Of a stretch of 64,000 nucleotides of DNA, positions 60,066-63,780 are shown piece after piece (positions within the stretch are counted from its first letter, which is position 1; each line of letters starts with the position of its first letter). Under the pieces are notes generated by a model. The model saw nothing but the letters and a program-made list of their open reading frames with translations, was not told where the DNA came from and searched no databases. Source of the DNA: a virus. Both the position numbers and the translations under genes were made by a program. The stretch is from the IMG/VR virus record IMGVR_UViG_3300042566_001028, positions 1-64,000 of that record, one strand, 5' to 3'.

Positions 60066-60429
60066 GGGGATGCTTTGGAATTGATTGCTATGTAAATGGT
60101 AATATCACATGTAGACAAAGTAAGAATGTCTTTAAATACTTACAAAACAATAACTGACGAAAAGTCAACTATGACTTACAACGACTTAATGGCGTTTGTA
60201 GGTATGGATTACGCTGTAGCAGCCTAACCAATCCCGCACACATCGTGGGACTTTAAATAGAATGTGAAATTGAGTGGAAACTAACTGAACTCAAAATCGA
60301 GTTAGAATATTGATTATAATGAAATAATAAAACTTATATATTTGTCAGTTGTGAATAACTGAATAAACATGTGAGATGCTGATATTATTGATTTCTAGTA
60401 AGACACGAGTTCGACTCTCGTCATCTCCA
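60066..60429 (+). ncRNA. ssrA: tmRNA (ssrA)
   Basis: The 5' end GGGGATG pairs with CATCTCC (60422-60428) to form the acceptor, including the G-U at the third pair that marks alanine identity. The T-arm ACGAG/CTCGT with loop TTCGACT is at the 3' end, and the 5' side has GGAATTGAT in place of the D-like loop. An open tag ends DYAVAA followed by TAA at 60225-60227; GTA just before GGT (60201) suggests resume at Gly, giving GMDYAVAA, though a GCG start is possible. A helix with CCCGCAC/GTGGG follows the tag. The length, 364 nt, is normal for tmRNA. Confidence 0.92.
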
Positions 60430-60489
60430 CAAATTTATTTAAGTATGGTAATCCTACTAACACAACTAGCGGACTTAAATAAAAAAATA

Positions 60490-60606: not shown

Positions 60607-60692
60607 TAAGATGATTGGTTGAAGCCATCAAATAATAAAACCGATTGAGTGACCTACCCAGTAGGGAAGAAAGCCGGACACCGATTATCTTA
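60607..60692 (+). ncRNA. Structured RNA element E1
   Basis: A 13-bp closing stem (60607-60619 with 60680-60692, with G-U pairs) encloses a hairpin CCTAC/GTAGG (60653-60665). AACCGATT at 60639-60646 can also pair with the 5' strand, so two alternative folds exist. A T-run follows. The element resembles E2 at 63150-63227 in its GATTGG stem and AAAGCC end. No known class matched. Confidence 0.5.
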
Positions 60693-60710: not shown

Positions 60711-60741
60711 TTTGGTAATGTTAAAAATGTTTCGTATATTA
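60711..60741 (+). promoter_or_regulatory. Phage promoter, first of tandem pair
   Basis: TTTGG at 60711-60715 and TATATTA at 60735-60741, spacer 19 nt. It reads toward the large RNA, 103 nt upstream of a second identical-type promoter. Confidence 0.82.
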
Positions 60742-60813
60742 CATAAGTAAATGAGAAACAATAGGTGATGAAAGATACTCGTTATTAAATTTACAAAAAA
60801 AGTTTTAAATAAA

Positions 60814-60844
60814 TTTGGCAGAATAAAAAATTATTCGTATATTT
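60814..60844 (+). promoter_or_regulatory. Phage promoter, second of tandem pair, at large RNA start
   Basis: TTTGG at 60814-60818 and TATATTT at 60838-60844, spacer 19 nt. Transcription would begin near 60851, giving the 5' end of the large RNA. Confidence 0.85.
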
Positions 60845-60850
60845 ATTAAA

Positions 60851-61930
60851 ACCGAAAGAAAGTTCTTTAAAAGATTGAAAATATTTTACATAGTGAGTTC
60901 GTCTCACATAGTAAACAACCGCCGCCTATGGTGGTTAAATAAACTACGAAAGTAGGATAAAGTGGATGTATTAAGTGATACATCTGCGGCTACTCTCCCC
61001 GTAAGGAGAGACTAGCTTGAGTAGGCAAGTGGGATATCATTCTCGCTAAAGTAGTTGAGGGTAACACTTTAGGCGAATAGTGGGAATGGTTGGGGTAGTA
61101 TAGATACTCCGACTGAGTTGGGAACAACAATAAGAATAACCCATAGAATATCAGTAAGAAGTGTAGACTTAATCCCTCTACATCATTGCGGTATTCAGTT
61201 TCAAAGTTATCTTAACATCAAGCCATCCGAAAGGACGCAAGATAAGATAGTGTACAAGTGGTGTTGTTACCATCCTTATATAGAGTTTGCCAAAACCTAT
61301 ATTTGAAGATGACTTAAAAAACCGCAGTAGGGATATTGCATCGGGTAGTTTAGTATTCTCTCGTTCAAAAGATGAGGGAGCTAGTGGTAAACCACTACCT
61401 GAATAATTCTATAAACTAAAACTCAATTTTGAATAGCATTTTCAAAAAATACAATTTAAAAATTAAGCTTAAGTGTTTACCAGTTGCAGATGAAAGGTGT
61501 GTACATAGTTAAGAGTTGTTCTTAGCCACGATACCTCCGCAAGAGGTCTGTGATTCTACCGAAAGGTTTCTAATTCCGCAAGAACTAATCAGGCTGCGAG
61601 GCTTGAAGAAAATGATTAAGTAGAGAGTAATCGGCAACTTAAAGACTGATAGTCTAAAATCATCCACATTGAATTGGTACTACTCAAAAGGTAGTGGAAA
61701 CGGAAGGAAACAAATAATCTTTCTAAAGCTGGTTCACCAAATAGAGTATTCTCATCTATTTATAAGCGGTTTTAGTGTAATAGTAGCACTCCTAGCATTC
61801 CAGTTAGGGAGAGGTGGGGCAGAACCATTTTACCGCTCAATACGAAGATTTTCGTGGTCTACCTTTTTGGCTGTTTCTTACTCAACAGTCGTTTCGTTTA
61901 AATTAGACCTAAAAGATAGAACGATATAAT
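60851..61930 (+). ncRNA. Large multi-hairpin non-coding RNA (about 1.1 kb), GOLLD/ROOL-like candidate
   Basis: No credible protein frame covers this region, yet it is packed with perfect hairpins: 60893-60907, 60917-60936, 60944-60955 (GAAA loop), 60965-60984, 60993-61010, 61092-61110, 61207-61245 (outer stem TTATCTT/AAGATAA around a TCC-GAAA-GGA loop), 61382-61397, 61533-61547, 61558-61567 (GAAA), 61679-61695, 61842-61855 and 61869-61890. Tandem promoters precede it and it lies in a tRNA array. GOLLD and ROOL RNAs, giant structured RNAs of phages, sit in just such places. The 3' end is approximate; it may run on to the terminator at 62317. Class membership is unverified. Confidence 0.7.
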
Positions 61931-61935
61931 AAAAT

Positions 61936-62130
61936 TGGAAGTAAGTGTTTTGGGGAGGATTTTGACACTAAAAATGCAATCAGAAACGATACACGATTGC
62001 CGGATTCGTAGTCGTACACTACAAGAGTTACCGCCTCCTATAAACTCTATTTTTGTGCAAAGTAATTTAATGAGGCTAGTATTAACCGGAGCATGACTTG
62101 ACGTGGCGTATTTTGAAATTGAATTACTTT
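61936..62130 (+). ncRNA. Second structured RNA or 3' domain of the large RNA
   Basis: Stems GCAATC/GATTGC (61976-61981, 61995-62000), GGAGG/CCTCC (61954-61958, 62034-62038) and an 11-bp stem AAGTAATTTAA/TTGAATTACTT (62060-62070, 62119-62129) indicate a folded RNA. No promoter precedes it, so it is probably on the same transcript as the large RNA. Identity unknown. Confidence 0.5.
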
Positions 62131-62166: not shown

Positions 62167-62256
62167 ATGAGAACTCTAACACATACACTTTGTAGTCAAC
62201 CGAATCAGATTTGGATTGGCAATTTCGTGCAGTTAGAGGATACGGATGTAGGATAA
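62167..62256 (+). CDS. Possible 29-aa microprotein
   Basis: An ATG-initiated frame of 29 codons between the structured RNA and a terminator. It has no Shine-Dalgarno and contains a small hairpin (62201-62215), so it may be part of the RNA instead. Kept only as a possibility. Confidence 0.15.
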   Translation: MRTLTHTLCSQPNQIWIGNFVQLEDTDVG

Positions 62257-62283
62257 AATGTAATAATTTTTGAATAATATTGA

Positions 62284-62317
62284 AAAACCTCTGACTAAAA
62301 AGTTAGGGGTTTTTTTG
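62284..62317 (+). terminator. Strong rho-independent terminator
   Basis: A 13-bp stem (62284-62296 with 62301-62313, three G-U pairs) with loop AAAA and a T-run. It ends the transcript containing the large RNA and separates it from the tRNA cluster. Confidence 0.92.
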
Positions 62318-62949: not shown

Positions 62950-63021
62950 GGTGTTTGAAGCATTAAGGTGATGCGTCGGTTTGTGGAGCCGGATAAGACG
63001 GGTCGGTACCGTCCTTACACC
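62950..63021 (+). tRNA. tRNA-His (GTG)
   Basis: The extra G at the 5' end (G-1, 62950) pairs with C73, the hallmark of tRNA-His; anticodon loop TTGTGGA gives GTG. The acceptor has two T-T mismatches. The T-loop reads GTCGGTA instead of TTCRA, an odd substitution. CCA appears to be encoded here (CCA after C73). Confidence 0.82.
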
Positions 63022-63137: not shown

Positions 63138-63149
63138 AATTTATAAGGT

Positions 63150-63227
63150 TGATTGGGAACAAAAGTAGCCCGCTAAAACGAGTTAGTGAAAATCTAATAC
63201 GCTACTACCGGTTAGTAAAGCCAATCA
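63150..63227 (+). ncRNA. Structured RNA element E2
   Basis: TGATTGG (63150-63156) pairs with CCAATCA (63221-63227); AGTAGC/GCTACT (63164-63169, 63201-63206) and TTAG/CTAA lie inside. It resembles E1 at 60607-60692 (AAAAC-GAG..TAGTGA and TAAAGCC near the 3' stem). It is the first product of the promoter at 63107. Class unknown. Confidence 0.5.
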
Positions 63228-63270
63228 TAAAAGTAATCGTCCACGCACCCATCTTTTACTTTCCTTAAAT

Positions 63271-63581: not shown

Positions 63582-63688
63582 GCCGGAGTGGCGGAATGAT
63601 AGTATGTACAACTATTAGACGTTCCCTTCCTAGGTGGGTGGTGTATCCGAAATGGACATCGTGTGAGTAACCAATCTCTCCTCCGGCA
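63582..63688 (+). other. Aberrant tRNA-Leu-like RNA, 107 nt
   Basis: The ends pair perfectly (GCCGGAG/CTCCGGC) with A73, the D-region begins GCGGAAT as in tRNA-Leu, and a long variable arm (about 63641-63659) is present. But the D-loop holds an inserted hairpin ATAGT/ACTAT, the anticodon region (CCC...GGG around TTCCTAGGT) gives no clean 7-nt loop, and the T-loop is TAACCAAT without TTCRA. It is either a decaying tRNA or a tRNA-shaped RNA with another role. Confidence 0.5.
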
Positions 63689-63780
63689 CCTTATGGGCTT
63701 TGGTGATACAGCCATAAAGAGAGACAGATGTTTCTCATTCACTAAAATAGGTAGGTGACTCCACACCTGCTTATTTTCTT
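63689..63780 (+). other. Spacer with hairpins and possible terminator (63744-63777)
   Basis: Contains TTATGG/CCATAA (63692-63718 region), and a 14-bp stem at 63744-63757 with 63764-63777 that ends in a T-run (some G-U). The latter may be a terminator or a processing hairpin in the tRNA transcript. Confidence 0.5.

What the first reader, a model, noticed from the sequence alone, without database searches (positions are those of the whole stretch)
60851..61930. Giant structured non-coding RNA of about 1.1 kb in a phage tRNA array
Seen: a region without credible protein frames, holding at least 13 perfect or near-perfect hairpins, several capped by GAAA or CGCAA loops, behind two tandem 19-nt-spacer promoters and before a strong terminator at 62284-62317. 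Known: GOLLD and ROOL RNAs are large ornate RNAs in phages, near tRNA genes, and are reported to assemble into multimeric cages. Inference: this is a divergent member of one of these classes or a new class, in a Bacteroidota phage.
Basis: partly seen in the sequence, partly recalled or inferred. Interest (0 to 1): 0.88.

Follow-up and report, generated by a model that had tools for sequence, protein, structure and literature searches.

The report
GOLLD giant RNA with tRNA-like tail
The stretch encodes a GOLLD RNA, a known but unexplained class of giant phage RNA reported to self-assemble into hollow cages; in this phage group it is followed at once by a tRNA or a shrunken tRNA look-alike that probably marks where the RNA is cut, and then by two structured RNA elements that match no known family.

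Summary
The flagged region is real and strongly structured. It is a GOLLD RNA: Rfam RF02032 matches 61341-61758 over all 416 model positions (280.8 bits, cut-off 150, E 4e-79); no ROOL, OLE or HEARO match appeared. The model covers only GOLLD's 3' domain. The upstream ~490 nt are the matching 5' domain, conserved in 26 other phage loci; across both domains 137 of 213 pairs show compensatory changes and 97.9% of cells pair (81% in shuffles). So it is a new member of a known class, not a new class. No cultured phage in the collection carries a match to this copy.

New to me is what follows. About 6 nt after GOLLD, loci of this phage group carry a tRNA-Gly, a cloverleaf with altered T and anticodon loops (this window), or a ~45-nt acceptor/T-arm minihelix. 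I infer an RNase P site that makes GOLLD's 3' end. Then come an optional ~210-nt pseudoknotted RNA (X), an ~80-nt riboswitch-like element (Y, found only behind GOLLD), a 22-53-codon ORF, and a terminator whose 5' arm can instead pair with the ORF's end: a possible attenuator before the tRNA array. None matches Rfam. These functions are inferred; GOLLD's own function remains unknown.

The parts
60712..60740 (+). promoter-like site 1 (TTGGTA-17-TATATT)
   Evidence: recurs in relatives, not tested
60815..60843 (+). promoter-like site 2 (TTGGCA-17-TATATT), probable GOLLD promoter
60852..61340 (+). GOLLD 5' domain (start approximate)
   Evidence: conserved and covarying in 27 loci, 83 of 119 pairs with double changes
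61341..61758 (+). GOLLD 3' domain
   Evidence: RF02032, 280.8 bits, positions 1-416
61404..61480 (+). A/U-rich variable linker inside the 3' domain
   Evidence: unpaired in the Rfam model and variable among relatives
61765..61837 (+). tRNA-like cloverleaf (UCC in the anticodon loop, non-canonical T-loop); proposed RNase P signal
   Evidence: not called as a tRNA
61848..62060 (+). element X, structured RNA with a pseudoknot, optional among relatives
   Evidence: no Rfam match
62061..62130 (+). element Y, conserved core inside a covarying outer stem
   Evidence: no Rfam match
62167..62256 (+). short ORF, MRTLTHTLCSQPNQIWIGNFVQLEDTDVG; possible leader peptide
   Evidence: homologues of 22-53 codons; coding not established
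62231..62239 (+). arm A (AGTTAGAGG), can pair with the terminator 5' arm at 62288-62296
62282..62315 (+). intrinsic terminator

Best explanation
60852-61764 is a GOLLD RNA with both of its domains, made from the promoter at 60815-60843 as the head of a non-coding transcription unit in the tRNA/tmRNA region of a large T4-like phage, probably of a Bacteroidota host. By homology to the GOLLD copy solved by cryo-EM it should fold without protein and assemble into a hollow multimer (14-mer in the solved case), with the 5' domain as cap and the A/U-rich linker inside. The tRNA-like element about 6 nt downstream is most likely a cleavage signal: RNase P cuts at its 5' side and so sets the 3' end of GOLLD. 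Shown here: GOLLD identity, both domains, covariation, and the tRNA-like element with its variants. Inferred: assembly of this copy (about 0.8), RNase P maturation (about 0.55), and a role of the cage in the phage's takeover of translation (about 0.3; the function of the whole class is unknown). The confidence given is for the identity.
For: RF02032 280.8 bits over positions 1-416. The 5' domain is conserved and covarying across 27 loci. Loci of the group carry a tRNA or tRNA-like element right behind GOLLD: tRNA-Gly-like, several with a 22-24 nt hairpin inserted in the D loop; the altered cloverleaf; or a minihelix of acceptor and T arm only. Minihelix acceptor arms covary: TATCAT/ATGATA, TATCTA/TAGATA, TTTTAC/GTAAAA, TTTCTC/GAGAAA. 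In other GOLLD lineages a tRNA-Met sits at the same place, and one locus (L369) carries a second, apparently independent minihelix; most remaining copies end at a T-run or terminator instead. GOLLD cages, and GOLLD rising at lysis: PMC12286853.
Against: No transcript data. Adjacency to a tRNA could be a by-product of lying in a dense tRNA array. The window's own tRNA-like element lacks the TTCRA T-loop that RNase P normally reads. One locus of the wider group (L274) has no such element. GOLLD was reported dispensable for phage production in a Lactobacillus brevis prophage (stated in PMC7567579).
Confidence: 0.9

Rival explanations
1. The tRNA-like element is not a processing signal but cargo or a functional extension of GOLLD: it stays joined to the RNA, for example held in or on the cage, or charged or bound like a tRNA.
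For: Altered T and anticodon loops are conserved among several phages rather than lost, with changed but paired stems. Other GOLLD copies carry a tRNA in the linker (PMC12286853).
Against: It has been reduced to acceptor and T arm in many loci, which keeps what RNase P reads and drops what decoding needs.
Confidence: 0.25
2. The adjacency is passive: GOLLD happens to lie in a tRNA array and the next tRNA is decaying without selection.
For: The array is dense, and most GOLLD copies outside this group have no tRNA there.
Against: Decayed copies keep complementary acceptor and T arms through compensatory changes, and a minihelix appears to have arisen twice.
Confidence: 0.2
3. The region is a new RNA class or a ROOL relative rather than GOLLD.
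For: The 5' domain is not covered by the Rfam model.
Against: Full-length RF02032 match; no ROOL match at E up to 1.
Confidence: 0.01
4. The hairpins are chance or belong to a protein-coding region.
For: A/T-rich sequence folds readily; ORFs of 46-86 aa exist.
Against: Covariation far above shuffles and refolded controls; frame-breaking indels among homologues.
Confidence: 0.01

Closest known systems
GOLLD RNA (RF02032; cryo-EM structure of env-38 in PMC12286853)
   Same: 3' domain matches over its whole length; separate 5' domain; A/U-rich variable linker in the 3' domain; phage genome; tRNA island
   Different: env-38 lies downstream of a Met-tRNA and some GOLLD copies carry a tRNA in the linker; here the linker holds none and a tRNA-like element follows the 3' end, with two unclassified structured RNAs behind it
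ROOL RNA
   Same: giant cage-forming phage RNA near tRNAs
   Different: no Rfam match at E up to 1
mascRNA of MALAT1 and the tRNA-like domain of tmRNA (from general knowledge)
   Same: RNase P cuts at a tRNA-like element attached to a longer RNA; the minihelix keeps acceptor stem, T arm and a GG-containing D-loop remnant
   Different: other genes and organisms; cleavage not shown here
ribosome-mediated attenuators with leader peptides (from general knowledge)
   Same: short ORF, an antiterminator arm at or just behind its stop codon, then a terminator
   Different: the genes downstream are tRNAs; ORF and pairing are predicted only

Membership tests
GOLLD | conserved 3' domain (RF02032) above the curated score | tested here: met
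   280.8 against 150 bits, positions 1-416
GOLLD | less conserved 5' domain forming a separate structured region | tested here: met
   119 pairs in the 5' domain, 83 with double changes; homology to the solved 5' domain of env-38 was not compared directly
GOLLD | variable linker within the 3' domain | tested here: met
   61404-61480 unpaired and variable
GOLLD | phage or prophage origin, near tRNA genes | tested here: met
   tmRNA and 14 tRNAs called in the window; phage replication genes
GOLLD | assembly into a multimeric cage | not testable with these tools
   needs mass photometry or cryo-EM
GOLLD | expression rises at lysis | not testable with these tools
   no transcript data
ROOL, OLE, HEARO | match to the Rfam model | tested here: not met
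   no match at E up to 1
tRNA (element at 61765-61837) | called by ARAGORN or the Rfam tRNA model; TTCRA T-loop | tested here: not met
   a cloverleaf fold is present
transcription attenuator | alternative pairing of the terminator 5' arm with an upstream arm, conserved across relatives | tested here: inconclusive
   6-9 bp A:B helices in all 24 listed loci, single-locus p 0.00-0.07 in 23 and 0.55 in one; several loci are near-duplicates, and arm A resembles arm C, so a duplication is possible

The most novel reading that the evidence does not exclude
GOLLD in this phage group heads a conserved non-coding operon: an RNase P-cut tRNA mimic forms its 3' end, two unclassified structured RNAs (X and Y, Y found only behind GOLLD) follow, and a short-ORF attenuator lets the phage switch on its tRNA array when translation stalls. 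That would tie the GOLLD cage to sensing or rescuing translation.
Probability: 0.3. Interest if true: 0.75.

Novelty: new member of a known kind. Interest (0 to 1): 0.5.

Why it matters
GOLLD is among the largest and most elaborate phage RNAs and has no known function. This group gives many related, covarying full-length copies with a fixed genomic companion (Y), a natural series of tRNA reductions at the 3' end, and a possible regulatory switch next door. Together they give testable clues to how GOLLD is matured and what it works with.

Tried and rejected
A loose 18-base GOLLD motif returned mostly chance hits; a 30-base version found nothing in viral contigs and one Clostridia contig with no GOLLD match in its assembly. 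blastn of the region against cultured phages found nothing. The nearest relative by DNA polymerase, phage Mel-JY01 (49%), has no GOLLD match. A group I intron inside the tRNA was considered and dropped: no Rfam match, and L139 carries an uninterrupted tRNA at the same place. The short ORF as an ordinary protein gene: no third-position excess of changes, so coding is not established. RNAalifold on a MAFFT alignment of X fails because the alignment is poor; helices were checked one by one instead, and of those the pseudoknot is the convincing one, since the single helices are weak against shuffles. Y and the minihelix do not stand out by folding energy alone (z about -1); their support is covariation and conservation. 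A first attempt to hand in this report failed for a formatting fault.

Full report
Identity. A scan of the window against all 4227 Rfam families gives one match that is not a tRNA or tmRNA: GOLLD, RF02032, at 61341-61758 on the + strand, 280.8 bits against a cut-off of 150, all 416 model positions. With the threshold relaxed to E up to 1, no ROOL, OLE or HEARO match appears.

Relatives and covariation. A neighbouring phage protein (59092-59745) and GOLLD motifs led to many contigs with GOLLD in the same setting. Twenty-seven loci were aligned over both domains. The consensus has 213 pairs, 137 with compensatory double changes. 97.9% of cells pair, against 81.2% in shuffles and 37-47% when partners are slid; refolded column-shuffled alignments reach -15 kcal/mol on average against -188. 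Both domains contribute: 83 of 119 pairs in the 5' domain and 53 of 93 in the 3' domain show double changes. The structure was derived from this same alignment, so the slid control favours it; the refolding control does not have that bias.

Behind the 3' end. The last GOLLD helix is followed after about 6 nt by a tRNA or tRNA-like element in loci of this group. Three forms occur: tRNA-Gly-like, in several loci with a 22-24 nt hairpin inserted in the D loop; a cloverleaf with T-loop GGCAGNA or similar and usually an 8-nt anticodon loop CATTCCAG (the window); and a minihelix with acceptor stem, a GG-containing D-loop remnant and a T arm. The window copy is not recognised as a tRNA but folds as a clean cloverleaf (z -2.4). 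In a wider motif survey of 115 GOLLD loci, a T-run or terminator follows in most, a tRNA starts within 60 nt in 18, and tRNA-Met is the usual one outside this group, with one further minihelix in L369. That survey holds near-duplicates, and its script filed some tRNA-like copies (for example L281 and L282) under T-run. I read the element as an RNase P signal that sets GOLLD's 3' end. This is inference.

Further elements. X (61848-62060) was compared in 13 phages. Its pseudoknot reads GGGAGG:CCTCCT, GGGGAA:TTCCCC, GGGAAA:TTTCCC or GTAGGG:CCCTAC at the same place in different phages. Y (62061-62130) has an outer stem of up to 12 pairs, with compensatory changes at 8, around a core of about 45 nearly invariant positions. 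A scan of the viral collection for Y's core found 30 stretches. Of the 15 not already known to hold GOLLD, 14 gave a GOLLD match over the cut-off; the other is a contig cut at its edge whose upstream sequence is plainly the end of GOLLD. GOLLD copies without Y exist (L257, L274, and the distant lineages). Neither element matches Rfam, and the stretch holding them in the window has no match among cultured phages.

A possible switch. A short ORF follows Y; homologues are 22-53 codons and share a start like MKxLxLHT and a later W. At its end or just behind its stop codon lies an arm that can pair with the 5' arm of the terminator, in all 24 listed loci, 6-9 bp. A ribosome finishing the ORF would cover that arm and let the terminator form; a stalled one would free it, and transcription would run on into the tRNA array. 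This is a hypothesis. The arm resembles the terminator's 3' arm, and the coding evidence for the ORF is weak.

Host. The genes are those of a T4-like phage: UvsX-like recombinase, single-strand binding protein, DnaB-like helicase, DNA polymerase, plus a GroEL. The GroEL is 60-61% identical to that of Bacteroides phages, and many Flavobacterium phages are among the matches. A Bacteroidota host is likely, not shown.

Verdict. GOLLD is certain for practical purposes; the cage is expected by homology; the 3' tRNA-like signal, X, Y and the attenuator are new leads of decreasing strength. Whether 3'-adjacent tRNAs were noted in the original GOLLD papers could not be checked, because those papers did not turn up in the library.

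Noticed in passing
60066-60430: Phage-encoded tmRNA with a long, conserved tag (DEKSTMTYNDLMAFVGMDYAVAA, 23 aa); a tmRNA also lies upstream of GOLLD in several relatives.
   Followed up: partly
60744-60795: Short conserved hairpin (core ATAGGTGATGAAAGATACTCG) between two promoter-like sites; its closing stem changes on both sides among relatives.
   Followed up: partly
L142, L138, L130, L149 (element after GOLLD): tRNA-Gly-like genes with a 22-24 nt hairpin inserted in the D loop.
   Followed up: partly
62951-63021: Probable tRNA-His missed by ARAGORN (Rfam 29.2 bits, just over the cut-off) with an unusual T-loop.
   Followed up: no
63590-63690: tRNA-like sequence (GCCGGAG...CTCCGGC) not called as a tRNA; looks like a variant class II or interrupted tRNA.
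   Followed up: no
60608-60690 and 63140-63230: Structured-looking spacers between tRNA genes; a similar spacer (AACCGATTG.GTGACC) recurs upstream of GOLLD in relatives.
   Followed up: no
window about 61040-61090 against L142 and L139: One arm of the GOLLD 5' domain differs as a block between close relatives, which looks like module exchange.
   Followed up: no
LR745206.1:420839-421288 (L269): A 635-kb uncultured phage record carries a GOLLD-like stretch (70% identical to L250).
   Followed up: no
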